Shown here in pieces: positions 4,899-17,063 of a stretch of DNA of 64,000 nt. The position numbers were made by a program, and so were the translations under genes. The stretch's first letter is position 1; each line of letters opens with the position of its first letter. The notes beneath the pieces were generated by a model. That model ran no database searches. It was given only the letters and a program-made list of their open reading frames with translations, and was not told the origin of the DNA. The DNA comes from a virus: positions 94,421 through 158,420 of the IMG/VR virus record IMGVR_UViG_3300030102_006951. One strand, given 5' to 3'.

Positions 4899-5987
4899 TT
4901 AACGTTTATTCACTAGTTCCCTAGTATTTGGTTCAGAACCAAATTCTCTACGATAAACAGTTTTTCCGTTATCTGGACTTTCATAGACGTAAACTTTATT
5001 TTTCACTTGTTCATCTATCCATTCATAAGTTTTTTTCATACCTTCTATAAGTGGTTGAGAGACTGCCCACCCTATTTTTTCATTATAAAGTTTATTGTCA
5101 GAATTTCTACCTCTAACACCTAACGGACATTTAAAACCATATTTTTCAATAAAATCTTGTCCGTCTATATTACTAATTTTAACATCTTTATTTGATATGT
5201 CAATAGCCATTTGTGCGAGTTCATTAATAGTTACCATTTCTTCAGAACCTATATTGACAGGGCCTATAAAATCTGATTCCATAAGACGAAGCACTGCTTC
5301 TACACATTCGTCTACATATAAAAATGAACGGGTCTGTTTTCCATCACCCCAGACTTCTACCGTTTTGTTTGATTCTGATACTTTCCTACACATAGCTGCT
5401 GGAGCTTTTTCCTTACCCCCTGTCCACGTACCCATAGGTCCAAATATATTATGAAATCTTGCGATTCGAACATTTAAACCATAGTTACGACTAAAGGATA
5501 AAAATAATCTTTCAGAAAATAGTTTTTCCCATCCATATTCCGAATCTGGGTTGGCGGGGTAAGCTGATGATTCTTCACAATTAGGACTATTAGAATCAAG
5601 TTGATTATGTTCTGGATACATACATGCGGAAGAGGAGTAGAAAACTTTTTTTACTTTCTTTTTAGTACACTCATGAACAACATTCAAATTAATTAATGCG
5701 GAATTGTGCATGACGTTAGCATCATTTTCACCTGTAAATATATAACCAGCACCGCCCATATCTGCGGCTAATTGATAAACCTCGTCTACATCATCACCTA
5801 TAACTTCTGACACTACTTTAGCATCCCTCAAATCCCCTTTAAAAAATTTGTCACATATGTCATCGTGATTGAAGAATTCATGATTTTTTATATCACAAAT
5901 TATTACTGTATTACCTTCTTTTTTTAATCTTTTCGCAAGATGACCTCCGATAAAGCCACCCCCACCTAGAACTACTATTTTTTTCAT
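4899..5987 (-). CDS. GDP-mannose 3,5-epimerase (extended SDR)
   Basis: The 362 residues align by eye with GDP-mannose 3,5-epimerase, which converts GDP-D-mannose to GDP-L-galactose/GDP-L-gulose. Visible features are the Rossmann GGGGFIGGHL (8-17), the ADMGGAGYI loop (75-83), SSSACMYPE (118-126, catalytic Ser/Cys pair C122), the YGWEK dyad (Y151, K155), RFHNIFGPMGTW (177-188), the epimerase-specific GGKEKAPAAM (190-199, K194) and GKQTR (216-220). All residues known to be needed in the plant enzyme appear conserved. The family is typical of plants and scattered in bacteria, and is unusual in a phage. It supplies an activated L-sugar to the neighbouring glycosyltransferases. Expression is probably driven by the CTTTACTTTA element 26 nt upstream of ATG. 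Confidence 0.85.
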   Translation of the reverse strand: MKKIVVLGGGGFIGGHLAKRLKKEGNTVIICDIKNHEFFNHDDICDKFFKGDLRDAKVVSEVIGDDVDEVYQLAADMGGAGYIFTGENDANVMHNSALINLNVVHECTKKKVKKVFYSSSACMYPEHNQLDSNSPNCEESSAYPANPDSEYGWEKLFSERLFLSFSRNYGLNVRIARFHNIFGPMGTWTGGKEKAPAAMCRKVSESNKTVEVWGDGKQTRSFLYVDECVEAVLRLMESDFIGPVNIGSEEMVTINELAQMAIDISNKDVKISNIDGQDFIEKYGFKCPLGVRGRNSDNKLYNEKIGWAVSQPLIEGMKKTYEWIDEQVKNKVYVYESPDNGKTVYRREFGSEPNTRELVNKR

Positions 5988-6038: not shown

Positions 6039-6146
6039 TTACATCAGTATCCTAAATAGATTATACCCCATTAATAAATTTTTCACAACTTTCTCAGGGC
6101 CATTCTGGTCTTGTGAGATATAAATTTGCAATGTTACTTCACCCAT
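6039..6146 (-). pseudogene. Remnant of a GT-B glycosyltransferase N-terminus (35 codons)
   Basis: A 35-codon frame begins at ATG 6146, inside the end of the FkbM gene, and stops at 6039. Its residues 7-29 read IYISQDQNGPEKVVKNLL then MGYN. This matches the N-terminal beta1-loop-helix of GT4-type enzymes, where 'NGP.KVV.NL' forms the glycine-rich acceptor loop, but nothing resembling the rest of the enzyme follows. The simplest reading is a glycosyltransferase gene deleted down to its first exon-sized piece during remodelling of the locus. It could instead be a chance or newly made short peptide. No further homology is visible towards 5988. Confidence 0.4.
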
Positions 6147-6757
6147 ATCATTCCCCATTTATCTTTTCTGTTTATGTCTATATCGTTGTGTATTTCACAC
6201 TCTTCCCACGATGTATATATTTCTGGTTTTTTTAAATATTCATCACCATATATAACACCAAAATCAGTATATCCAATAGATTTTAAATGTTCACAAGTTT
6301 TATTAATGTTAACATATTGTTCTTCAGCCCATTCAAAACAAATTTCTTTCTGCTTATTTGACAGTCCCTTTATAACTTCTAATTCATACCCTTCAACGTC
6401 AATCTTAATTAAGTCTGGTGTTTTGTGGTTAATAACTAAATCATCTAAGCTTATAGTGTTTTTAACAATAGTAGAGTTCCATTTGTAATTATTAGAAAAT
6501 CTAGAATTATTAATCCAATCAATACTAGCGGTAGATATTGTGTCTGCATTGCTTATGTGAAATTGAATTTTTTTATTACTTTCAGTAGAAACTAAATCTT
6601 CAATTATAACCACATTTTTATTAAAAAATTTCTTTTTTAACTTATTATATAACTCTATATTTGGCTCAACTGAAATAACTTTGCAATTTGGATATAATTC
6701 TAAACATTTATCTGTAAAATTACCCACGTTTGCACCTACATCAAAAATCAAATCCAT
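6134..6757 (-). CDS. FkbM-family SAM-dependent methyltransferase (copy 1)
   Basis: At 207 residues it begins at once with the SAM-binding motif I (IFDVGANVGNF, 4-14), then SVEPN (35-39), and has the FkbM signature LIKIDVEGYELEVIKGL (about 136-152). Such enzymes O-methylate sugar hydroxyls in glycolipids and surface glycans. It starts 3 nt after the stop of a second FkbM gene, so the pair is coupled. The two are only distantly alike, so this is an old duplication or two acquisitions. Its 3' end overlaps the short glycosyltransferase remnant. It is likely to cap or decorate the glycan made by the neighbouring transferases. Confidence 0.8.
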   Translation of the reverse strand: MDLIFDVGANVGNFTDKCLELYPNCKVISVEPNIELYNKLKKKFFNKNVVIIEDLVSTESNKKIQFHISNADTISTASIDWINNSRFSNNYKWNSTIVKNTISLDDLVINHKTPDLIKIDVEGYELEVIKGLSNKQKEICFEWAEEQYVNINKTCEHLKSIGYTDFGVIYGDEYLKKPEIYTSWEECEIHNDIDINRKDKWGMIWVK

Positions 6758-6759
6758 AA

Positions 6760-7389
6760 TTAATTATTTTTTATATAAAAAGCATCTCCCCATTCATAGG
6801 GTGTCATTTTTATTTCAACTCTTTTAAATCCAAATTGAGACAAATATTCATCTATCTCTTCTATTTTGGCGCACTTTTTGTAAACCTCTCCAGAATTAAC
6901 TTCAGTATAAATGTAGTCTATTTTTTCTAAAGAATTTTTCATACCTTTCAATGCTAACAATTCAGCACCTTGTATGTCTAAGTTTAAAAAATTATAATCA
7001 TAAGGATTGAATCCTTCCTCTTCAAAAAAAGTGTCAATTTTTTTAGTTTTAACAATTTTTTTATCAACTACGGTTATGTGGGGGTGATGCTTTGTATGTT
7101 TTCCCATCTCTAAAATTGAAGAAGACTCCCCATTGCTAGCCACATGGAAATCAATCTCTTTACCGTCTATATCAGATGCAGCAAAACAATAAGATTTATG
7201 TAATGGGTATTTATTAATAATCAGACTTAATTCTTTAAACGTATCAATGTCGGCCTCTACCCACAAAACATCTTTGACACCAGACTGTACATAAGAGTCT
7301 GCTTCTTGAGCATGGTGAGCGCCAACGTGTAATATTCCCCTTGGTGTTATTCCGTACTTATTTACTATATCTTTAAATTTAATTAGCAT
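6760..7389 (-). CDS. FkbM-family SAM-dependent methyltransferase (copy 2)
   Basis: The 209-residue protein has motif I HVGAHHAQEAD (21-31), an acidic SAM-ribose residue in WVEADIDTF (43-51), and the FkbM signature FLNLDIQGAELLALKGM (about 133-149). It is predicted to transfer a methyl group from SAM to a sugar hydroxyl. It is separated by 1 nt from the GT2 gene upstream and by 2 nt from the second FkbM gene downstream. No membrane segment is present, so methylation would occur on a cytosolic precursor. Confidence 0.82.
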   Translation of the reverse strand: MLIKFKDIVNKYGITPRGILHVGAHHAQEADSYVQSGVKDVLWVEADIDTFKELSLIINKYPLHKSYCFAASDIDGKEIDFHVASNGESSSILEMGKHTKHHPHITVVDKKIVKTKKIDTFFEEEGFNPYDYNFLNLDIQGAELLALKGMKNSLEKIDYIYTEVNSGEVYKKCAKIEEIDEYLSQFGFKRVEIKMTPYEWGDAFYIKNN

Positions 7390-7390
7390 A

Positions 7391-8059
7391 TTAATTGTAT
7401 TTTTCTAAAATTTGTTTTAAATCATATTTCTTTGTATTAAAGTTGCTGCCCTTATGTATTCTATGTAACACTAACTCTTCTTTTATATTCATAAACTTAG
7501 CCCCGTGTTTCATTAACCTTAACCAAAAATCAAAGTCTTCAATACCAGATAATTTTTCGTCCCACCCATTAATTTTTTTAGCAATGCTTGTTTTTAAAAT
7601 AGCAGAACTATTTGCAATTTGATTATCACCCATCATTGAGCGTGAAAATATTTCATCATGTTCTGCACACAAATTTGGTTGTCCTGTTATTATTTCAGAT
7701 TCATTACAGTAAAATATTTTAGAACCTATAACATCGTATTTCCCAGTTTTAGAAAACTTATTTTGTATTTCAAGTTTTTTTGGTAACCATATATCGTCAT
7801 CATCCTGAATTGCAATCCATTCACCCCTAACTTCTTTTAATAATTTGTTTAATGTTTTTGATTTACCTTTATCTAACCCATAATCAAAAACTCTAATTCT
7901 TTTATCGTTATAATTTTTAACAATATTTTTTGAATTGTCGTTTGTTCCATTAAAACCAATAAGTAATTCCCAATCTGTATATGTTTGGTTTATTATTGAA
8001 TCAATGGATTTACTAATATATTTTTCACCGTTGTATGTTGCTAATAATATTGATATCAT
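7391..8059 (-). CDS. Family 2 glycosyltransferase
   Basis: This is a classic short GT2 of 222 residues. It has an SILLATYNGEKYI opening (3-15), SIDSIINQTYTDWELLI (18-34), and an Asp-rich donor/metal site AIQDDDDIW at 83-91. A NGWDEKLSGIEDFDFWLRL segment (about 165-183) carries the ED catalytic-base region. Cytosolic, inverting by family; the sugar is unknown. It is the gene immediately after the fucosyltransferase-like gene in transcription order (11 nt gap). Confidence 0.85.
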   Translation of the reverse strand: MISILLATYNGEKYISKSIDSIINQTYTDWELLIGFNGTNDNSKNIVKNYNDKRIRVFDYGLDKGKSKTLNKLLKEVRGEWIAIQDDDDIWLPKKLEIQNKFSKTGKYDVIGSKIFYCNESEIITGQPNLCAEHDEIFSRSMMGDNQIANSSAILKTSIAKKINGWDEKLSGIEDFDFWLRLMKHGAKFMNIKEELVLHRIHKGSNFNTKKYDLKQILEKYN

Positions 8060-8070
8060 AAATTACTTAT

Positions 8071-8889
8071 TTAAATTACAATCCAGTTTGTTTCGTATAT
8101 ATCTTTAACATCTTTAGGTCCTTTAGGTCCAAACCATATTCTGGGTGCAATTACCTTATTATTGTGTGGGCATAAATAAGCTCCCCACCAGCTGAAACTA
8201 CTATTAGCTATAATGTGATTATTAGACTGTACTAGTAAACATAAATCATCTATTTCATTTTTAAAAGGTGAATAATATATATTTTTAGCTTTAAAGTTAT
8301 CTTTGCACCACTCAATATCGTCTGATACAAATATAAATTTAGTATTATTATCACCTATAATATCCATACTTTTTTTATAATAATCAACGCTACATGTTGG
8401 GTGGTAACCTGGGTTATTAAGGTAATCACCTCTACGAACATGAACAGATGTTATATTATTATCATTTCCAATATTATTTACAAAATCACAAACTCTATCT
8501 ACCCTTTCTTTTGAGAAATGAAAAAGTTTTGATATTTCATTTTTAAAATCGTGAAAATACTTTGAGCTTTGGAAGTAGCCGAATATTTCCAACCCCTCCG
8601 ACCATTTTTTAGTGGGTGCAATTTCTGAATAAGAAAAACCATTTTCTTTATATTTGTGTTTTAAATTACCAATATTTTGGTTTGGGATATTTTTAAAGAA
8701 GTCATTTTTGTATGTGTTCGACACATTTCCCTGTAATTGTGTATCACATTTATTAAAATCAAACGTACATTTAACACTTTTATAGTCTTCTGGGTATAAC
8801 TCTTTTAACTTCATGGTTAAACCCTTTGCGGCTGCTATCTGAAACATTTGGTTGCCGATGCCTCCCATTAATTGTGCTGTAATAATCAT
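8071..8889 (-). CDS. GT11 alpha-1,2-fucosyltransferase family protein
   Basis: The 272-residue protein has the GT11 hallmarks: LMGGIGNQMFQIAAAKGL (7-24), HVRRGDYL (150-157, GDP-binding Arg-Arg), FIFVSDDIEWCK (about 186-197) and NSSFSWWGAYLCP (about 228-240). The family transfers L-fucose from GDP-beta-L-fucose to the 2-OH of galactose, making H-antigen-type termini. The length matches bacterial members. No GDP-fucose synthase is visible, but a GDP-mannose 3,5-epimerase that would make GDP-L-galactose (fucose with a 6-OH) is encoded 2 kb away. It lies 7 nt downstream of the GT6 gene in the same unit. Recognition of the family is firm; donor and acceptor are inference. Confidence 0.87.
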   Translation of the reverse strand: MIITAQLMGGIGNQMFQIAAAKGLTMKLKELYPEDYKSVKCTFDFNKCDTQLQGNVSNTYKNDFFKNIPNQNIGNLKHKYKENGFSYSEIAPTKKWSEGLEIFGYFQSSKYFHDFKNEISKLFHFSKERVDRVCDFVNNIGNDNNITSVHVRRGDYLNNPGYHPTCSVDYYKKSMDIIGDNNTKFIFVSDDIEWCKDNFKAKNIYYSPFKNEIDDLCLLVQSNNHIIANSSFSWWGAYLCPHNNKVIAPRIWFGPKGPKDVKDIYETNWIVI

Positions 8890-8896
8890 AATTATA

Positions 8897-9574
8897 TTAA
8901 TTTCTAACTTCTTCGTGGTTTTTATCTAATGCTATTAATTTCTTATCAAATGGTATATTCATACTTTCACCATAACAATAACTGGGGTTAAGAATCTTAG
9001 TTGGTGTGTTGTCAAAGAAATATCTATTCATGTGACTTTCATCATGCCACTTAGCGATAATACCATTTTTAAAATCAATGTCAATATTATCTGCTAAGTT
9101 TTTAGCCATTTTTAAATACTCTTCACTTGTACCGCCATTAAAACCACCAGCAAAATACTGATTTTGGTCGTTTGGGTCTATGTAAGCTAATGAATTTGGG
9201 TTGGTTTCTGGAGTTCCTTTACTACCATAGAAACCAGGGTGTTGTGTTGCAACTCTTTCTGAAATTATTTCATCACCAACCTCACTAACGAATTTCATAT
9301 CGGCATCTGAATAAAATAAATAATCCATTTCAGATAATTCTTTTCTTGACTCGTTAAATATTTTATATCTACCTAGTGTCATCCATGGCCAATCTTTATG
9401 TTCAACATTTATTTTAACCACATTTCTTTCAGTGAATAACTCAACATCTTCATTGGTAAATACAAAGTATGTAACCTCTTGATTTTTAAGTAAAAATTTA
9501 TCAGCGCTAGTTATGAGTGGTTGTAAAAATCTAATATACTTGTTTGTTGCTATAATTAATAAACCTATTTTCAT
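8897..9574 (-). CDS. GT6 family (ABO/alpha-1,3-Gal(NAc)) glycosyltransferase
   Basis: The 225 residues match the GT6 catalytic domain: YFVFTN (36-41), DWPWMTLGRYKIF (61-73), DYLFYSDADMKFV (84-96) with a DXD at D90-A-D92, QHPGFYG (111-117), and WHDESHMNRYF (176-186). PTKILNPSYCY (191-201) is also present. Vertebrate GT6 enzymes include the blood-group A and B transferases, which add GalNAc or Gal alpha-1,3 to Fuc-alpha-1,2-Gal. Most bacterial GT6 proteins carry NXN in place of DXD, as I recall, so the intact DXD here is notable. The transmembrane stem of the animal enzymes is absent. The next gene in the unit is GT11, whose product would be the natural GT6 acceptor. Confidence 0.88.
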   Translation of the reverse strand: MKIGLLIIATNKYIRFLQPLITSADKFLLKNQEVTYFVFTNEDVELFTERNVVKINVEHKDWPWMTLGRYKIFNESRKELSEMDYLFYSDADMKFVSEVGDEIISERVATQHPGFYGSKGTPETNPNSLAYIDPNDQNQYFAGGFNGGTSEEYLKMAKNLADNIDIDFKNGIIAKWHDESHMNRYFFDNTPTKILNPSYCYGESMNIPFDKKLIALDKNHEEVRN

Positions 9575-10290
9575 GATTGTATTTTTTTATATGGTGTCAT
9601 ATTTCTTATTTTAATGGCGATATCATTAACAAGTGCTAAGTCTACCTTGTGGTCATTAAGTGGATTTTCTTCATTATAAATATAATTGATATCATCCATA
9701 AATTTATAGTGTTCTTGTCCAGCCATTTCTAGCATTGGGTACATGAATGATAAATCACCAGTTACTTTCCAATATACACCATTTTCATCTTTTAAATCGT
9801 CTTGCTTTATATTTCTCCACAGAAATGTTCTCCACGTTCTTATATGTGACGCTGTAAATCTAGACTTGCGTAAGTTAGGTGTGATAATTTGTTCTGAAGA
9901 AAATCCAGGATTTCCATTAGAATATCTGAAGCTGCCGTTGGCAATCCATACTTCTGGGTCTGAATAGACCTCAGCTATTCTAGAAAGTGTTTTAGAATCT
10001 GGTAACCAATCGTCACCATCAACCTCAACGATTACTTCGTCATCAGAAATTTTGTCGTTATATCTAATAACTTGGTCATAATTACCTGGTTGGTATAATT
10101 TTTCCTTATTCTCTATAAGAATGAATCTATCGTCACCATTAATCATGTTTTTAACTTTATCTACAGACCCATCAGTACTGATATCATCCGTAATATAACA
10201 TGTGAAACCTTTATAATTTTGGCCCATAAGTGAGCTAATACATTTTTCAACATAATCTTCTGCATTATATAATGTTGTAATTATTATCAT
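9571..10290 (-). CDS. Family 2 glycosyltransferase
   Basis: At 239 residues it opens IIITTLYNAEDYVEKCISSLMGQ (2-24), followed by ITDDISTDGS (33-42) and a metal-binding EVDGDDWL (89-96). These are the three usual landmarks of the GT2 N-terminal half. The C-terminal half (TWRTFLWRNIK, about 151-161; DLSFMYPMLEMAG) fits the acceptor-binding side. It overlaps both neighbours by 4 nt (ATGA type), indicating translational coupling with the GT6 gene downstream and the GT-B gene upstream. Donor unknown. Confidence 0.83.
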   Translation of the reverse strand: MIIITTLYNAEDYVEKCISSLMGQNYKGFTCYITDDISTDGSVDKVKNMINGDDRFILIENKEKLYQPGNYDQVIRYNDKISDDEVIVEVDGDDWLPDSKTLSRIAEVYSDPEVWIANGSFRYSNGNPGFSSEQIITPNLRKSRFTASHIRTWRTFLWRNIKQDDLKDENGVYWKVTGDLSFMYPMLEMAGQEHYKFMDDINYIYNEENPLNDHKVDLALVNDIAIKIRNMTPYKKIQS

Positions 10291-11081
10291 AATTCTAAAA
10301 CTTTAACCCACTCTTTAATGATTTCTTCATTCGTTAAATCTTTAGTGTCGTGGTTAGTTGCGTGATTACCAAAAAATTTAGTGCCATTAGTTTCGCACTC
10401 GTCCTTAACCAGGCTGGCTACTTCTGATTTAGAAGAAAGGTAAACAGCGTCTATCATATTGTACATCTTTTCTTTATCAGATATAAACCCATATTCAATT
10501 ATCTTGTCTTTATTGTCTTCTATTATTGGTTTTACTTCGTTTTCATAAAATTGTTGGTCTGTTACATTACCAAATATATATACTTTATCATACCCGTCAT
10601 TAATTGCTCTAAGGATTGATATATGTGTTTGTTTGTTTTTATCTATTGAACCAATAACTCCAGCGCATTTATCAGCACCTTCTTCCTTAATGCTATTGGG
10701 TAGTGGTTCTTTTAAATTTGGTATTGTTACATAAGAACCCGTATATGCACTATGGTATTTTCTTTGTTTTTCATTAAGAAAAATACATTCATCCCAAAAC
10801 GGAACAACTCTACTAACTTCATATACGTCTTTTTCGTGACAATTTAAGACTACTTTTTTAACTGGTGGTCTATCTGGTAAAGCTAAGAAGTGTATGATAA
10901 GTGTGTCATCAGGTTCTGGTTTAAAATTATCCAATTTATCTGATTTACACTTATCTAAGTGCCAATCATGCGGACCATACATTTTAGCTTCGTATCCAGC
11001 GTCATTTAATGCGTTTGTTAGTCGTATAAATGCAAATGTGGAACCACCTTTATTACTCCAACCAGTAAGTATTTTTATCAT
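10287..11081 (-). CDS. GT-B fold glycosyltransferase-like protein
   Basis: The 264-residue protein starts MIKILTGWSNKGGSTFAFIRL, a Rossmann strand and glycine-rich loop seen in GT4-like proteins. It continues with NCHEKDVYEVSR (about 92-103), a TIPNLKEPLPNS linker (about 128-139) and a GVIGSIDKNKQTH donor-domain start (about 149-161). The usual GT4 E-x7-E at the C-terminus is weak (SSKSEVASLVKDECETNGTK). It may be a short or degenerate transferase. It is coupled by 4-nt overlaps on both sides, so it belongs to the same glycan pathway. Confidence 0.62.
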   Translation of the reverse strand: MIKILTGWSNKGGSTFAFIRLTNALNDAGYEAKMYGPHDWHLDKCKSDKLDNFKPEPDDTLIIHFLALPDRPPVKKVVLNCHEKDVYEVSRVVPFWDECIFLNEKQRKYHSAYTGSYVTIPNLKEPLPNSIKEEGADKCAGVIGSIDKNKQTHISILRAINDGYDKVYIFGNVTDQQFYENEVKPIIEDNKDKIIEYGFISDKEKMYNMIDAVYLSSKSEVASLVKDECETNGTKFFGNHATNHDTKDLTNEEIIKEWVKVLEL

Positions 11082-12163
11082 GATAAAACTTTTTGATATA
11101 CGTTTATTATTTCTTCAATATCGCCATCCACAGTAACGCAAGGTAATTCTGGATATAATTTTTTAAGGTCAGATGTTTTTTCAGTATCTGTGGTGTGTGT
11201 TAAATGGAATTTTACCTCACTCATTCTATATAACTTATTTGGTTCTGAAGTTACAGGTCCGTTGGGTGTGTTTACACCCCATTTTCCATCTCCAATTCTG
11301 TAACCTGGGGGTTCGTTTATTGGTACGAATTTAACTCGCTTAAACATTAGTCTTTTAAAGTTGTTTTTATCCGAATCTAATATAGGGGTTGAAACAGTGA
11401 CATTATGTTTATCTTTTTTAAGTTTATCAACTAATTCAATAGTTTCACCAATACTGCTACCGACAACTAAAACGTTGTATTTTTCCTTTCCAGTGAATAC
11501 TTTATCTATTTTTACTGGTAAGTTTTCTTTAAACTTATTAGCGAACTCTTTTCTGTTGTCTTCCCATTCTTGATTTGTTTCACCAACCGATTTATGATTT
11601 ACTCTAACATTAGTATGAACTCCAATTTTAACCCCAGATAAATAATTTCTGAAACAAAAATCTACATCATAAAAATGAAACCCCTTAACATTTAAATCAA
11701 AGTCTTTATTTATTCTACCTCTATGAACACTAAAAAAAACTCCATCTACAATAACAACTTCAGTTATTTCATTTCCTAAATCTTCACTATATGAAGATAA
11801 CCAGGTTTTTCCATTTGATGTATGTGCCACCTTACCATACATTTTTTTCCTATCATCCCACCACCTTCCGCTTTCACTCATGTATTTAGTTCCAGCAACT
11901 CCAATTATCCCAAATTCTGGATTGTCTTCAAAAAGCTTGGTTATTTTTTTGGCTATTTGTTTGGTTTCAATTGTTATGTCATCATGACAAAAAACAATGA
12001 TATCATTTTTAGCTTCCTTAATCGCTTTATGATAGTATTTTGTTAACCCTTCACCTTTGTTTATATATTCTATTATCTCAACTTTTGGGTTACCACATGC
12101 TTTTGATAAATGCTCCTTATGTTCTGGTTTAGATTCTTTTGTACAATAAACTATACTAATCAT
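11078..12163 (-). CDS. Two-domain glycosyltransferase (GT2-like N-terminus, unknown C-terminus)
   Basis: Residues 1-215 resemble the GT2-like enzymes with a VFCHDDI metal site (58-64), an EFGIIGVAGTKYM strand (about 83-95) and HFYDVDFCFRNYLSG (about 163-177) carrying the catalytic acidic residues. Residues 225-361 form a second alpha/beta domain (NVLVVGSSIGETIELVDKLKKD) with a Rossmann-like glycine loop that I cannot assign. It may be a second sugar-handling or nucleotide-binding domain. Length 361 is longer than single-domain GT2 enzymes. It overlaps the sulfotransferase gene and the GT-B gene by 4 nt each. Confidence 0.68.
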   Translation of the reverse strand: MISIVYCTKESKPEHKEHLSKACGNPKVEIIEYINKGEGLTKYYHKAIKEAKNDIIVFCHDDITIETKQIAKKITKLFEDNPEFGIIGVAGTKYMSESGRWWDDRKKMYGKVAHTSNGKTWLSSYSEDLGNEITEVVIVDGVFFSVHRGRINKDFDLNVKGFHFYDVDFCFRNYLSGVKIGVHTNVRVNHKSVGETNQEWEDNRKEFANKFKENLPVKIDKVFTGKEKYNVLVVGSSIGETIELVDKLKKDKHNVTVSTPILDSDKNNFKRLMFKRVKFVPINEPPGYRIGDGKWGVNTPNGPVTSEPNKLYRMSEVKFHLTHTTDTEKTSDLKKLYPELPCVTVDGDIEEIINVYQKVLS

Positions 12164-12843
12164 TTTATAATATTTTTATATTTTTCATTATATATTTTTA
12201 ATGCCTCTTCATAAAATTTTATTTCACCTGAAAGTAAATCCTCTAATTTATTCTTATCTTCTTCGATTATTTCTTTTTTATTCTTGGTTTTATTAGTCGT
12301 TTGATATTTTGGAATCCAATTATTAGTTACACAACACAAATCAATAAATTCATTATAATTTTCAGTAAACCCAAAAATAAATTTATCGTCTTTAATATTT
12401 TTTAATGCAATTTGTAATTTAGATTCATAAGGTAGGTCTTTTGGTGCACCAGAAACATGATTTAATTGATAAAATAATTGACTTGTGTCTTCATTGAACC
12501 AGTCTATAATATTTTTGTTTTCATTTATCCAACCTCTGTCTATTGCGTATCGGTATGCTGAAATGGTTCTGGAAACTGGATGTCTAAGCATAGCAATATA
12601 TTGATAGTCTTTAGTTTTAAGGTATTCGTGTAGGCCATAAGTGAAGTGTTCCGAAAATAAATCATAGTGTTCTAGGGTTGCCATTCCATTTGGTTCTGAT
12701 TCTAAAAATTTACCAATGTCTTTGACATCGGTTAAGTACCATAATTTACCATAACCCCAATAATGTTTTTTAATATTTGATTCTAGAAAGTGTCTAAAGC
12801 TAGTTCCAGCGGTTTTACCTATATGTAAAAATATATGTTTCAA
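12160..12843 (-). CDS. PAPS-dependent sulfotransferase-like protein (TTG start)
   Basis: The 227 residues contain the 5'-phosphosulfate loop HIGKTAGTSFRH (7-18) and the 3'-phosphate-binding LRHPVSRTISAYR (86-98), the two PAPS signatures of carbohydrate sulfotransferases. The start is TTG at 12843. This TTG overlaps the TGA of the small gene upstream as TTGA, which supports coupled initiation; no ATG lies nearby ahead of the PAPS loop. It would sulfate a sugar in the cytosol. It is the first enzyme of the tight 6134-12843 glycan block. I did not see PAPS-synthesis genes, so host PAPS would be used. Confidence 0.8.
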   Translation of the reverse strand: MKHIFLHIGKTAGTSFRHFLESNIKKHYWGYGKLWYLTDVKDIGKFLESEPNGMATLEHYDLFSEHFTYGLHEYLKTKDYQYIAMLRHPVSRTISAYRYAIDRGWINENKNIIDWFNEDTSQLFYQLNHVSGAPKDLPYESKLQIALKNIKDDKFIFGFTENYNEFIDLCCVTNNWIPKYQTTNKTKNKKEIIEEDKNKLEDLLSGEIKFYEEALKIYNEKYKNIIK

Positions 12844-13139: not shown

Positions 13140-14207
13140 TTATTTATTAAATCTTTTAAACGAATTATCACTAATTCTTATAATATTTGCTTTATTAACA
13201 AATTCCTCTAGTGTATTTGAATCTGAATAACTCATTGCTGAACGTAAATATGACTTAAAATTATCAACCCAACCACTGAGAGTGTATTCTATCTTTCTAT
13301 ATGTGACTATACCTTCAGATGTTTTTAATACGGCATTTCCCCACTTTCTTTGAACCTCTTTTGTACTCATCCCTCTGAACTTTTTGTACACTGGTATTGA
13401 GATATCTCTACATTTTTTAGCACCATATTGAGTTATGGGTACTCTTCTGAATATATAATTTTTACCACATGACTCTAAGGCTTTATTAAAAATACTACCA
13501 ATCATTACATAATCAGCACCAAGAGCTAGAGCTTTTATTACGTCTGAATAGTTTTTCATACCCCCATCGGCAACTATTTTAGCTGGGTTGTCTAAGCTCA
13601 ATGATTTATAGTAACACTCTCTAACTAGACTAGCCATTGGGAACCCAACGCCAGTTTGCTGTGTTGTTAAACATCCACCACCATTTCCTATACCCACTCT
13701 TATATAGTCAGCCCCAGCATTTGATAATAAACCATACGTTTCAGGGTTGGCTACATTGCCTACCATTAATAATAATTTATCACCCCATATTTCTTTTGAT
13801 TTAGACACTGATTCAACCATTTCTTTGGTATGACCATTTGCAGTATCTATTAACACCTTAAATTGTGTTGGTGGGGTAGTGGATGATTTTATATATGACT
13901 CTAAAATTTTTTCTCTTATTATAAATGTGTTTATAAACTCCTTAAGTGAGTATGATTTAAAACTTGAATCGTTACCTTCTTCACCTCTTGGTAAACATAT
14001 ATTAATACCTAGCTCTTCAAATTTTTTGTAGTTGGTGTTATCAATAACGGTATCCATTGGTGCGGTGAATAATGGTAATTTACCATTTTCATCTATAATA
14101 TTTATTCTAGACCTAGTACTAATATCACTTACTTTAGATGGTTCTATTAATACATCATTAAAATCTAATTTTAATGTATTCTCATTAAAAAAAGTATTCA
14201 AACCCAT
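13140..14207 (-). CDS. GMP reductase / IMP dehydrogenase family enzyme
   Basis: Landmarks, numbered from ATG 14207, are FTAPMDTV (47-54), LIDTANGH (119-126), [13 protein letters not shown] with catalytic Cys179, and [15 protein letters not shown] (180-194). [29 protein letters not shown] and FRGMSTKEV follow. The TTQQTGVG loop and FRGMS flap look more like GMP reductase (GMP + NADPH to IMP + NH3) than IMP dehydrogenase, but I cannot exclude the latter. No CBS insert is present. An upstream in-frame ATG at 14249 would overlap the dUTPase gene by 35 nt; I prefer 14207, which follows an A-rich leader and the dut stop by 7 nt. It would recycle host nucleotides alongside dUTPase. Confidence 0.82.
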
Positions 14208-14214
14208 ATGTTTT

Positions 14215-14817
14215 TTATTTAATTCCTGTTGAGCCAAATCCACCATCACCTCTATTTGTTTGATTTAGGCTTTCAACCTTTGTAAAATTTACTAATGTCT
14301 TTCCCACCAAGCTCGATAAGACACCTTGAGCTATTCTATCACCATTTTCAATTATAAATGGTTCTTTACCATGATTTATAAGTATAATCATAACTTCACC
14401 TCTGTAGTCAGAATCTATAGTTCCTGGTGAATTTAATACTGTAACACCGTGTTTTGCCGCTAAACCACTTCTGGGTCTTACCTGTAATTCCAAGTGTGTT
14501 GGTAGTTCAAAGTAAAGACCTGTTGATATCATTGTTTTTTCACCTGGTCCTAGTGTTACTACTTCATTTATATTAGCCCTGAAATCAAATCCAGCTGACC
14601 CCTCTGTAGAATATTCTGGGTCTGGGTTATTTGATTTATTAATAAATTTAATAGAGTATCCAATACTGAATTCATTTTTTGTTACATCGGTTTCTGGTAA
14701 GATATACTTATCTAATTGTGAATACTGTTTAGTGAATTCATCTAAATTATACCCGCCTTCTTCATTTATCGCTTTTAATAAATTTTCAAGCATTTCAATT
14801 TCCTTAAAATCTGACAT
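14215..14817 (-). CDS. dut: dUTPase (trimeric family)
   Basis: All five dUTPase motifs are visible: GSAGFDFRA (73-81), RPRSGLA (114-120), [16 protein letters not shown] (127-142), GDRIAQ (159-164) and [10 protein letters not shown] (189-198). The catalytic Asp lies in motif 3. The enzyme hydrolyses dUTP to dUMP and pyrophosphate, limiting uracil incorporation. At 200 residues it is about 50 longer than typical trimeric enzymes. The extra N-terminal 48 residues (helical, acidic) are not part of the catalytic fold. It is adjacent to the GMP reductase-like gene. Confidence 0.95.
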
Positions 14818-14834
14818 ATAATATATTAATTATG

Positions 14835-15389
14835 TTATTTTTCTGACATTATTGCGACCATGTTTGCAGTTCTTAATAATGCGGATAATTTTTCACCTAA
14901 AGTTGTCATTGGTCTTTGTGAAAAATCGCTATTATAGTTATATATTGCAAAAACCTCATCTTCGTTTAAATTTATACCACATTTAAGTGCATAGTAAATT
15001 GAACGCTCAGCTGTAGACATACTTAATAGTTCGTCATTAAATGTATACATTTCTCCTCTATTATCTTTATGCCACTTAGATGTTTGTTCTGAATACATTT
15101 TAGCTTTACCAATTTGGTGAATTAAACACACCCTAATTATGTTTTCTGAGCTAACTTGCTTATCTTCTGGCAAAGCCTCATTAATATTTAAAGCGTACTT
15201 AGTTGTGTTCAATATGTGTTGTATTAAACCACCATCATAGGCACCGTAAAGGTTTGTTGTTGTAGTGCATGGAGCATCAATAAACTCTTTTCCGAGCATA
15301 TTCATTAAATCGTCATTTACGACATCGTATTTAAGTCCAGTATCATTAAATTTTTTTGCGTTTTTTAAAATTTTTTCTTTTGATAACAT
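14835..15389 (-). CDS. HD-domain fold protein with lost metal ligands
   Basis: The 184 residues follow the helical order of the phage/bacterial HD phosphohydrolases: GGLIQHILN (53-61), VCLIHQIGKAKMY (87-99), ELLSMSTAERSIYY (120-133), EDEVFAIYNYNSDF (143-156) and SALLRTANMVA (169-179). In active members these positions read H...HD..., GHGEKS, WHMG and AD. Here the HD Asp is Gln92, the GHG histidine is gone (MST), the WHM histidine is Tyr/Asn, and the final AD is AN. Only H58 and H91 remain. By sequence it should not bind the usual metal pair, so it is probably a non-hydrolytic nucleotide sensor or inhibitor. It sits 17 nt upstream of dut. Confidence 0.65.
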   Translation of the reverse strand: MLSKEKILKNAKKFNDTGLKYDVVNDDLMNMLGKEFIDAPCTTTTNLYGAYDGGLIQHILNTTKYALNINEALPEDKQVSSENIIRVCLIHQIGKAKMYSEQTSKWHKDNRGEMYTFNDELLSMSTAERSIYYALKCGINLNEDEVFAIYNYNSDFSQRPMTTLGEKLSALLRTANMVAIMSEK

Positions 15390-15412
15390 AAATATTTTTT
15401 TTAATTATTTGT

Positions 15413-15760
15413 TTAAACAGGAATGTGTTCTTTTAATGGGCCAACAACAACATTTGTTATTTTTCCTTCAGAATCTAATGTGACTCCAGTTCTATTTTTA
15501 AAAGATTCTTCTAAAGATTCACTATTTTTTTCGATTATTGCGTTTTTCTTAGCTTCTTCCTTTAAGTTATTCATCTTCTCTTTTAATTCGTTCTTAACTC
15601 TAGATTCAACATTGTCTATTTCATCTATTTTTTTCATGATATCGTGAGCCCTCGTCATATCACCTGTTTTATCATTGGTTTTGTTGTCTTCAACAACATC
15701 ATCTTTTAAGTATTCTGCTATAAAGTCAAATACTAAATTTAGTTTTTCTTTTTTATTCAT
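15413..15760 (-). CDS. Unrecognised 115-residue acidic helical protein
   Basis: I use ATG 15760 (MNKKEKLNLVFDFIAEYLKD), which follows the stop of the glycosyltransferase gene at 15783 by 22 nt. A longer frame from 15808 would overlap that gene. Residues 40-95 are a strongly charged predicted helix or coiled coil (VESRVKNELKEKMNNLKEEAKK). The last 30 residues (TGVTLDSEGKITNVVVGPLKEHI) look beta-rich. It could be a small scaffold or assembly factor, but I do not recognise it. Confidence 0.55.
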   Translation of the reverse strand: MNKKEKLNLVFDFIAEYLKDDVVEDNKTNDKTGDMTRAHDIMKKIDEIDNVESRVKNELKEKMNNLKEEAKKNAIIEKNSESLEESFKNRTGVTLDSEGKITNVVVGPLKEHIPV

Positions 15761-15782
15761 AAACACAAATTTAAAACAATTT

Positions 15783-17063
15783 TTAAGATATTGCAACTTT
15801 TGCAACACTCGATTTTTTATTTTTTAATATATTAATATATAAATTTTTCCTATTTTCAGTCACGGCATCAATACTATATTTGTCTTTAACTGTATCGTTT
15901 AACTTACTACTTAGTTCAGTAACCAATTCTGGATTTTCAATCAATCTTTTTATGTTTCTAAACCAGTCTTTATGATTTTTATTAGACTTGACCAACAACG
16001 CATTTCCCATTGGGTTTACTGGTAGGTTGTGTTGTCCTTTTTCTGGTTTATCATAGTAGTTAAATAAGTCTAGTTGATATGGCCCAAAGTCTTGCGCAAT
16101 AATAGCCTTATTATGAAAACCAGCTTCAATAACTTTTAATTGTGACTTAACCTTGTTAAAAGTATGTTCTTCAAGTGGTGCTAAAGATACATCAAATAAG
16201 TTATAATTTGTGGCATATGTGGAAATTGGTTTAGTCCATACTCTTCTATATGATTCATTTTCAACTCCGTCATATTCATCTTGTTTAAAACTAAGCAAAT
16301 GTTTTCTATATTCATCACTAACTATAGAGTAATTATCTGTAAATATTTTTTCATACTGATACCAAACACTTTCTTTTGGTTGTATTGGCCTTTGTTTTCT
16401 TTTTCCAGTTTTTTCATCAATCATTGTTACTGAACCCCTTAAGTCGAAACCACATAATACTAATTGTATTTTGTCTATTAATTTACTTGATTTTAATTGT
16501 CCAACAAAATTACCTAATAATTGTAGGTCTTTTAAGTGGCTACTACCTCCTAGCCATCCTATTCTTAATTTGTCTGAGGGTTCTGATTTTGGTTTATATT
16601 GTTTTTCTTTAGGGTCGATTGCGTTTGGTAAAACAAATACGTTTTCATTGTATTTTTTAATTTCATCAGCAAACAGTGGTGTTGTAGTTATTATATTTCT
16701 AGCCACTTTAATATTATTTAAAATATTTTTATCCATTCCAGATTGTTTAATCAATAGATAGGCTGGGTGGTGTTTCCCTGGAGACCAGTGGTCATCGATA
16801 TCCATAAATGTTTTGATTCCCAATTTATCACACCTTTCTAATACGCTTTCGACTTTATCAAATGGGCCCAAGCTTCTATGATAATGAATTATATCGTATT
16901 TTTTTAAAAAATTATCATCATTAATTTTTGGTTCATAATCTATGTCAATATGAAATTTATCTGGATAATTATTTTCTAGTGTGATGTGTGGTTTTGTTGA
17001 GCGGAAATAACCAACCCCTGTTCTGTCTGACGGTACTACTAATACCTTAATTTTTTTACTCAT
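15783..17063 (-). CDS. GT-B glycosyltransferase (GT4-like)
   Basis: The 426 residues begin KVLVVPSDRTGVGYFRSTKPH (6-26), an acceptor-side glycine loop seen in GT4-like phage and bacterial enzymes. They continue with the DIDDHW strand end (88-93), VLPNAID (144-150) before the interdomain linker, and GWLGGSSHLKDL (169-180) opening the donor domain. The C-terminal part (LKVIEAGFHNKAIIAQDFGPYQ, about 327-348) carries the nucleotide-sugar-binding Glu. It is the first gene of the accessory arm after the terminator at 17133, with no partner overlap. Substrate unknown. Confidence 0.8.
   Translation of the reverse strand: MSKKIKVLVVPSDRTGVGYFRSTKPHITLENNYPDKFHIDIDYEPKINDDNFLKKYDIIHYHRSLGPFDKVESVLERCDKLGIKTFMDIDDHWSPGKHHPAYLLIKQSGMDKNILNNIKVARNIITTTPLFADEIKKYNENVFVLPNAIDPKEKQYKPKSEPSDKLRIGWLGGSSHLKDLQLLGNFVGQLKSSKLIDKIQLVLCGFDLRGSVTMIDEKTGKRKQRPIQPKESVWYQYEKIFTDNYSIVSDEYRKHLLSFKQDEYDGVENESYRRVWTKPISTYATNYNLFDVSLAPLEEHTFNKVKSQLKVIEAGFHNKAIIAQDFGPYQLDLFNYYDKPEKGQHNLPVNPMGNALLVKSNKNHKDWFRNIKRLIENPELVTELSSKLNDTVKDKYSIDAVTENRKNLYINILKNKKSSVAKVAIS

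What the first reader, a model, noticed from the sequence alone, without database searches (positions are those of the whole stretch)
8071..9574. Adjacent GT11 and GT6 genes: a phage pathway for blood-group-like glycan termini
The unit encodes a GT6 enzyme (ABO family; DXD at D90-A-D92, WHDESHMN) and, 7 nt downstream, a GT11 alpha-1,2-fucosyltransferase (HVRRGD). In known biology GT11-type enzymes make Fuc-alpha-1,2-Gal (H antigen) and GT6 enzymes add Gal or GalNAc alpha-1,3 to that galactose. The two genes are thus consecutive steps, coupled in one operon. The intact DXD is unusual among non-vertebrate GT6 proteins as I recall. Such a phage could coat its fibres or the host with an ABO-like sugar. 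The linkage is an inference from family activities.
Basis: partly seen in the sequence, partly recalled or inferred. Interest (0 to 1): 0.82.

Follow-up and report, generated by a model that had tools for sequence, protein, structure and literature searches.

The report
Phage ABO-type sugar transferase gene pair
A virus of bacteria carries, side by side, genes for two sugar-adding enzymes of the families that build human ABO blood-group sugars; the same pair recurs in many cyanobacterial viruses and bacteria, so it is a real, probably cooperating pair but not a new kind of system.

Summary
Window 8897-9574(-) encodes a full-length GT6 protein with intact DXD (D90-A-D92) and WHDESHMN. Window 8071-8889(-), 7 nt downstream, encodes a GT11 protein with HVRRGD. 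Family, structure-model and active-site evidence agree.

GT11 is adjacent to GT6 far more often than random gene placement gives, in viruses and in bacteria. In three bacteria the two are fused into one protein, in both orders. In relatives of this phage the pair persists while its order and spacers change. Consecutive H-then-A/B-type synthesis, as in E. coli O86, is therefore the best explanation.

Three corrections. (1) Intact DXD is normal here: 107 of 109 viral and 32 of 80 bacterial GT6 proteins sampled have it. (2) The pair is not unique: annotated cyanophages (Bellamy, S-CAM9, S-PRM1, P-SSM2) carry both genes together. [quoted passage not shown] However, phage epimerase genes are not linked to GT11 beyond chance.

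Linkage, acceptor and target (virion or host surface) are untested. Closest bacterial relatives (Dependentiae) carry GT6 with no GT11 found, so GT6 does not always need it.

The parts
8897..9574 (-). GT6 (ABO-type) glycosyltransferase, 225 aa, DXD at D90/D92, donor-site triplet A142-G143-G144, W176-HDES, K218, R224
   Evidence: Pfam E=4.2e-48; PDB sequence hits; AF2 model pLDDT 86, TM 0.86-0.94 to GTA/GTB and BoGT6a; residues
8071..8889 (-). GT11 (alpha-fucosyltransferase family) glycosyltransferase, 272 aa, HVRRGD at 150-155
   Evidence: Pfam E=1.6e-26; AF2 model pLDDT 83 with best PDB matches NodZ, FUT8 and POFUT1 fucosyltransferases; conserved blocks
8890..8896 (-). 7-nt gap between GT6 stop and GT11 start (tataatt)
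9571..10290 (-). GT2 glycosyltransferase, overlaps the GT6 start by 4 nt
7391..8059 (-). GT2 glycosyltransferase directly downstream of GT11
6760..7389 (-). FkbM-type methyltransferase
6134..6757 (-). FkbM-type methyltransferase
4899..5987 (-). GDP-mannose 3,5-epimerase (GME)-type SDR; possible source of GDP-L-galactose; part of a conserved block with PhoH in relatives
   Evidence: PDB 2c59 E=7e-97; S-A-C122, Y151xxxK155, K194, R294 invariant among phage homologues; block
10287..11081 (-). weak GT1/GT4-like protein, same operon (4-nt overlaps)
   Evidence: E=0.11 only
11078..12163 (-). GT2-like glycosyltransferase (PF13712), same operon
12160..12843 (-). sulfotransferase-like protein, first gene of the overlapping gene run
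   Evidence: PF03567 E=5.4e-8

Best explanation
A glycan-building cassette of a T4-like phage contains two enzymes acting one after the other. The GT11 enzyme adds an alpha-linked L-fucose (or its close analogue L-galactose) to a terminal galactose. The GT6 enzyme, metal-dependent through its DXD, then adds alpha-1,3 GalNAc (or Gal) to the same galactose, giving an ABO-like branched terminus. Shown here: both families, intact known catalytic motifs, overlapping gene run, recurrent pairing across phages and bacteria, and natural fusions. Inferred: the reaction order, the linkages, GalNAc as the preferred second sugar (A-G-G as in BoGT6a), and that the product sits on the phage or on the infected host's surface polysaccharide.
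For: Families and folds. Active-site residues shared with GTA and BoGT6a: DXD, H112, T121, WHDES, K218 (the end of the GTA row is gapped there, but the pairwise alignment pairs K and R with it). R224 matches the arginine that PMC3961637 reports as conserved in most metal-dependent GT6 but not in bacterial enzymes. Pairing: adjacent in 31 of 44 bacterial and 19 of 48 viral dereplicated loci that hold both, against 8.3 and 5.6 expected, P<=5e-5, also at 60% dereplication. Fusions GT6-GT11 (L092, L110) and GT11-GT6 (L095). The window's relatives L124, L144 and L138 keep both genes in one genomic slot with different order and spacers. Precedent: WbwK+WbnI in E. coli O86; BoGT6a transfers GalNAc to 2'-fucosyllactose (PMC4202792, PMC3961637).
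Against: GT6 occurs without any detected GT11: in the DXD bacterial clade only 7 of 32 loci have GT11 within 3 genes, and nearly all Dependentiae/Babeliales genomes tested have none (draft genomes). Seven of the 13 IMG/VR records over 20 kb re-searched because no GT11 lay near GT6 hold none at all, though these are fragments. GT11 has a characterised alpha-1,3 member. No acceptor-building or export genes were identified, and no biochemical data exist for any phage member that I could find.
Confidence: 0.6

Rival explanations
1. The two enzymes are neighbours in a glycan cassette but act on different branches or in a different order; GT6 acts on an unfucosylated acceptor (as vertebrate alpha-1,3-galactosyltransferase does) and GT11 makes another alpha-fucosyl or alpha-L-galactosyl linkage.
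For: Nearest bacterial DXD relatives mostly lack GT11. The cassette has at least three further GT genes. GT11 includes an alpha-1,3 enzyme (PMC4202792).
Against: Strong adjacency above random placement in phages and bacteria, and fusions in both orders.
Confidence: 0.25
2. The donor of the GT11 step is GDP-L-galactose from the phage's own GME, giving an L-galactose version of the H/A structure.
For: The GME gene is in the same gene run, with the diagnostic Cys, Lys and Arg. No GMD or GFS homologue was found in the 158-kb record at E<=1e-8. GME-GT11-GT6 are consecutive in S-CAM9, Bellamy, SynMITS9220M01, S-PRM1 and S-8S53. Several fucosyltransferases accept GDP-L-Gal (PMC8787198).
Against: Across 59 dereplicated phage GME loci GT11 is in the locus in 23 and adjacent in 2, with 3.2 expected; 7 of 59 also carry GMD/GFS. 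In this phage's relatives GME belongs to a conserved block with PhoH that is present without GT6. The host could supply GDP-fucose, and the record is not known to be complete.
Confidence: 0.25
3. One or both genes are unexpressed or catalytically dead passengers of a rapidly exchanged cassette.
For: The slot between the GT2d and PhoH genes is highly variable among relatives.
Against: Full-length open frames, conserved catalytic motifs and confident fold models.
Confidence: 0.08

Closest known systems
E. coli O86 WbwK (GT11) + WbnI (GT6), blood-group-B-like O antigen
   Same: Same two families; review PMC4202792 gives WbwK as alpha-1,2-fucosyltransferase and WbnI as alpha-1,3-galactosyltransferase on Fuc-alpha-2-Gal.
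   Different: Chromosomal O-antigen locus rather than phage; WbnI is a bacterial GT6 and that review says bacterial enzymes have NXN, while the phage enzyme has DXD and A-G-G. O86 enzymes were read about, not compared here.
Cyanophage GT11/GT6 genes: Bellamy, S-CAM9, S-PRM1, S-8S53, SynMITS9220M01, B23, DSL-LC02, P-SSM2, ACG-2014f
   Same: Phage-borne GT6 with DXD next to or a few genes from GT11; several annotated as such in GenBank.
   Different: Order is GT11 then GT6, usually overlapping; GT6 identity to the window 33-43%; many carry GMD and GFS, or GME directly upstream; different T4-like lineage.
BoGT6a of Bacteroides ovatus
   Same: Closest PDB sequence; same A-G-G donor triplet; model TM up to 0.94 by query length.
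   Different: NXN and metal-independent; lacks the second C-terminal arginine arrangement of metal-dependent GT6.
Human GTA/GTB
   Same: Fold, DXD, catalytic WHDES.
   Different: L-G-G or M-G-A at the donor site; Golgi type II membrane protein.

Membership tests
GT6 | Sequence match to the family profile over the catalytic domain | tested here: met
   PF03414 164 bits, cut-off 25, residues 2-225; NCBIfam NF041524 208 bits is below its cut-off of 250
GT6 | GT-A fold like GTA/GTB/BoGT6a | tested here: met
   Foldseek top 50 shown are all GT6 structures
GT6 | Metal-binding DXD (metal-dependent branch) | tested here: met
   D90-A-D92; metal dependence itself not tested
GT6 | Transfer of Gal/GalNAc alpha-1,3 to galactose | not testable with these tools
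   needs enzyme assay
GT11 | Profile match and HxRRxD motif | tested here: met
   PF01531 93.7 bits, cut-off 23.9; HVRRGD
GT11 | Fold like GDP-fucose transferases | tested here: met
   NodZ, FUT8, POFUT1 best Foldseek matches, TM about 0.5 only
GT11 | Alpha-1,2 linkage and GDP-L-fucose donor | not testable with these tools
   an alpha-1,3 GT11 exists (PMC4202792)
GDP-mannose 3,5-epimerase | Catalytic Cys, base Lys (not His), acidifying Arg, YxxxK | tested here: met
   C122, K194, R294, Y151/K155 aligned to AtGME and invariant in phage homologues
GDP-mannose 3,5-epimerase | Makes GDP-L-galactose | not testable with these tools
   needs enzyme assay
O86-type H-then-A/B synthesis pair | GT11 and GT6 in one gene cluster | tested here: met
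O86-type H-then-A/B synthesis pair | GT6 requires the GT11 product | not testable with these tools
   genomic linkage only
O86-type H-then-A/B synthesis pair | GDP-L-fucose supply genes (GMD, GFS) in the same genome | tested here: not met
   tblastn of GMD and GFS references found none in the record at E<=1e-8; record may be incomplete and the host may supply the donor

The most novel reading that the evidence does not exclude
Some T4-like phages build an L-galactose version of a blood-group A/B-like structure: GME supplies GDP-L-galactose, GT11 transfers L-galactose, and a metal-dependent GT6 caps it, so that related phages swap between fucose and L-galactose forms of one terminus.
Probability: 0.2. 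Interest if true: 0.65.

Novelty: new member of a known kind. Interest (0 to 1): 0.42.

Why it matters
If the steps are consecutive, phages carry and reshuffle the machinery for ABO-like sugar ends, which gives a testable account of how phages change their own or their host's surface sugars. It also offers small soluble metal-dependent GT6 enzymes with natural partners, and a clear evolutionary point: the loss of the metal site (DXD to NXN) fits a single switch in one mostly bacterial branch, while phages, Dependentiae/Chlamydiae relatives and the vertebrate enzyme kept it.

Tried and rejected
1. 'Intact DXD is exceptional': rejected. 2. 'GME is generally the donor enzyme for phage GT11': a neighbour test on 59 dereplicated GME loci gave 2 adjacent, 3.2 expected, P=0.86; the consecutive GME-GT11-GT6 order appears to be a trait of one cyanophage lineage. 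My first count, in which GME and GMD/GFS never shared a GT6 locus, looked like donor exchange but rested on 6 GME loci, and 7 of 59 GME loci do carry both. 3. 'GT6 always needs GT11': rejected as a rule. 4. A search for another known fucosyltransferase family beside GT6 in Dependentiae (L039, L043) found none among ten neighbours by Pfam; inconclusive. 5. GT11 phmmer against PDB gave nothing at E<=1; the fold search was needed. 6. Literature searches for a phage ABO-type pathway found none, but the library is open-access only. 7. Host identification: capsid and terminase are only 29-42% identical to Flavobacterium phage immuto and Microcystis phage Mel-JY01, so no host is assigned.

Full report
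WHAT IS THERE. The window is positions 94421-158420 of a 158,420-base IMG/VR virus record. Large terminase, portal, gp23-type major head protein and tail sheath matches show a T4-like tailed phage. Its capsid and terminase are nearest to, but far from, Flavobacterium phage immuto and Microcystis phage Mel-JY01, so the host is open. On the minus strand from 12843 to 6134 runs a chain of closely packed genes: sulfotransferase-like, GT2-like, weak GT1/GT4-like, GT2, GT6, GT11, GT2 and two FkbM methyltransferases. From the sulfotransferase to GT6 successive genes overlap by 4 nt, and GT6 and GT11 are 7 nt apart. A GDP-mannose 3,5-epimerase-type gene follows at 4899-5987.

THE TWO PROTEINS. GT6 matches PF03414 at 4.2e-48 and aligns end to end with BoGT6a and human GTA. 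An AlphaFold2 model from 10 window and IMG/VR sequences (pLDDT 86) has only GT6 structures among its 50 best PDB matches. It has D90-A-D92, WHDES, K218 and R224. PMC3961637 states that the residue equivalent to Arg365 of bovine alpha-3GT is kept in most metal-dependent GT6 but not in the bacterial ones; R224 occupies that place in the alignment to GTA. The donor-site triplet is A-G-G, the same as BoGT6a, which uses UDP-GalNAc; GalNAc as donor is therefore an inference from one characterised enzyme. GT11 matches PF01531 at 1.6e-26, has HVRRGD, and its model (pLDDT 83) is closest to NodZ, FUT8 and POFUT1, all GDP-fucose users, though only at TM about 0.5.

IS THE PAIRING MEANINGFUL? I took 80 bacterial GT6 loci, 80 IMG/VR loci, 11 further IMG/VR loci and named phages, and looked for GT11 with a profile built. 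After dereplication at 80% GT6 identity there are 78 bacterial and 59 viral loci. Where both genes are in the locus, GT11 is directly adjacent in 31 of 44 bacterial loci (8.3 expected if gene order were random) and 19 of 48 viral loci (5.6 expected); no simulation of 20,000 reached either value, and the result holds at 60% dereplication. The null model shuffles positions inside the retrieved stretch only; it does not model shared descent beyond the dereplication. GT11 and the huge GT2 superfamily are the two commonest neighbours. Three bacterial proteins join the domains, GT6 first in Hoeflea and a planctomycete and GT11 first in an alphaproteobacterium.

Named cyanophages show the pair clearly: GT11 then GT6, overlapping by 4 nt, in Bellamy, S-CAM9, SynMITS9220M01, S-PRM1 and S-8S53, each with a GME-type epimerase gene directly upstream; B23 and DSL-LC02 have the overlapping or touching pair without that gene; P-SSM2 and ACG-2014f have GT11 and GT6 a gene or two apart with GMD and GFS upstream. 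In all, 71 phage records carry a GT6 match. The order in the window is the reverse.

THE CASSETTE. Comparing window genes with all fetched loci shows a fixed frame: dUTPase and GT2d on one side, PhoH, a HAD-like gene, GT1 and GT2a on the other. Between them genes change from phage to phage. L124 has GT2c-GT6-GT2b-GT11, L144 GT11-GT6, L138 GT11-SDR-GT6; L213 has neither. Keeping both genes through such reshuffling is what joint function predicts, but only a few relatives of this lineage carry GT6.

DXD. Of GT6 sequences sampled, 107 of 109 viral ones have DXD and 2, both from human faecal samples, have NAN; among 80 bacterial ones 32 have DXD. On a tree of 92 sequences DXD/NXN needs one change, on a branch with SH-aLRT 99 (quick search, many inner branches weak, unrooted). 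These counts are not dereplicated and the IMG/VR set is biased to relatives of the window.

THE DONOR. The only nucleotide-sugar SDR found by tblastn with GME, GMD and GFS references in the whole record is the GME-type gene. It has the features that PMC8787198 uses to separate GME from GDP-fucose synthase and GalE. This makes GDP-L-galactose a possible donor, and that review reports several fucosyltransferases accepting it. But an independent test failed: phage GME genes are not next to GT11 more than by chance, and in this lineage GME sits in a conserved block with PhoH. I therefore hold the L-galactose reading as possible, not likely.

AGAINST A SIMPLE STORY. GT6 of the DXD bacterial clade (mostly Dependentiae, Babeliales, Chlamydiae) is usually without GT11: 7 of 32 loci have it within three genes, against 36 of 46 NXN loci and 35 of 57 phage DXD loci, and whole-genome searches found none in nearly all of those genomes. 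So a GT6 enzyme of this branch can evidently be kept without GT11. One GT11 enzyme is alpha-1,3. Nothing here shows where the sugar goes. Large tail-fibre genes lie divergently next door from 19719 on, which is compatible with fibre decoration but is not evidence for it; cyanophage papers favour host cell-wall or lipopolysaccharide modification (PMC9602691).

VERDICT. Real pair, sound family calls, probable consecutive action (about 0.6), not unique and not of a new kind. The useful additions are the quantified linkage, the fusions, the single DXD/NXN switch and the open donor question.

Noticed in passing
window 6134-12843 between 4899-5987 and 14215-17063: A variable glycan-gene slot sits between conserved neighbours (GT2d/dUTPase/GT4-like on one side; PhoH, HAD-like, GT1, GT2 on the other) in IMG/VR relatives; gene content and order change from phage to phage.
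   Followed up: partly
L092:7650-9590, L110:8001-9629, L095:888-2570: Natural GT6-GT11 and GT11-GT6 fusion proteins in Hoeflea, a planctomycete and an alphaproteobacterium.
   Followed up: yes
L038-L064 and their genomes: Dependentiae/Babeliales carry DXD GT6 genes, some close to GDP-fucose synthesis genes, but no GT11 was found; which fucosyltransferase they use is unknown.
   Followed up: partly
Bellamy (L016), S-CAM9 (L023), S-PRM1 (L033) and related records: GME-type epimerases, matched best by the window's GME, are annotated as 'UDP-glucose 4-epimerase' or generic epimerase in cyanophage records; likely misnamed.
   Followed up: partly
L005:8577-11796: Two tandem GT6 genes followed by GT11; the first has D-V-C in place of DXD.
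   Followed up: no
window 13140-14249: Phage gene for an IMP dehydrogenase/GMP reductase-family protein overlapping a dUTPase gene; the family is GTP/GDP-sugar related but no link was tested.
   Followed up: no
window 12160-12843: Sulfotransferase-like gene at the head of the glycan gene run, suggesting a possibly sulfated glycan.
   Followed up: no
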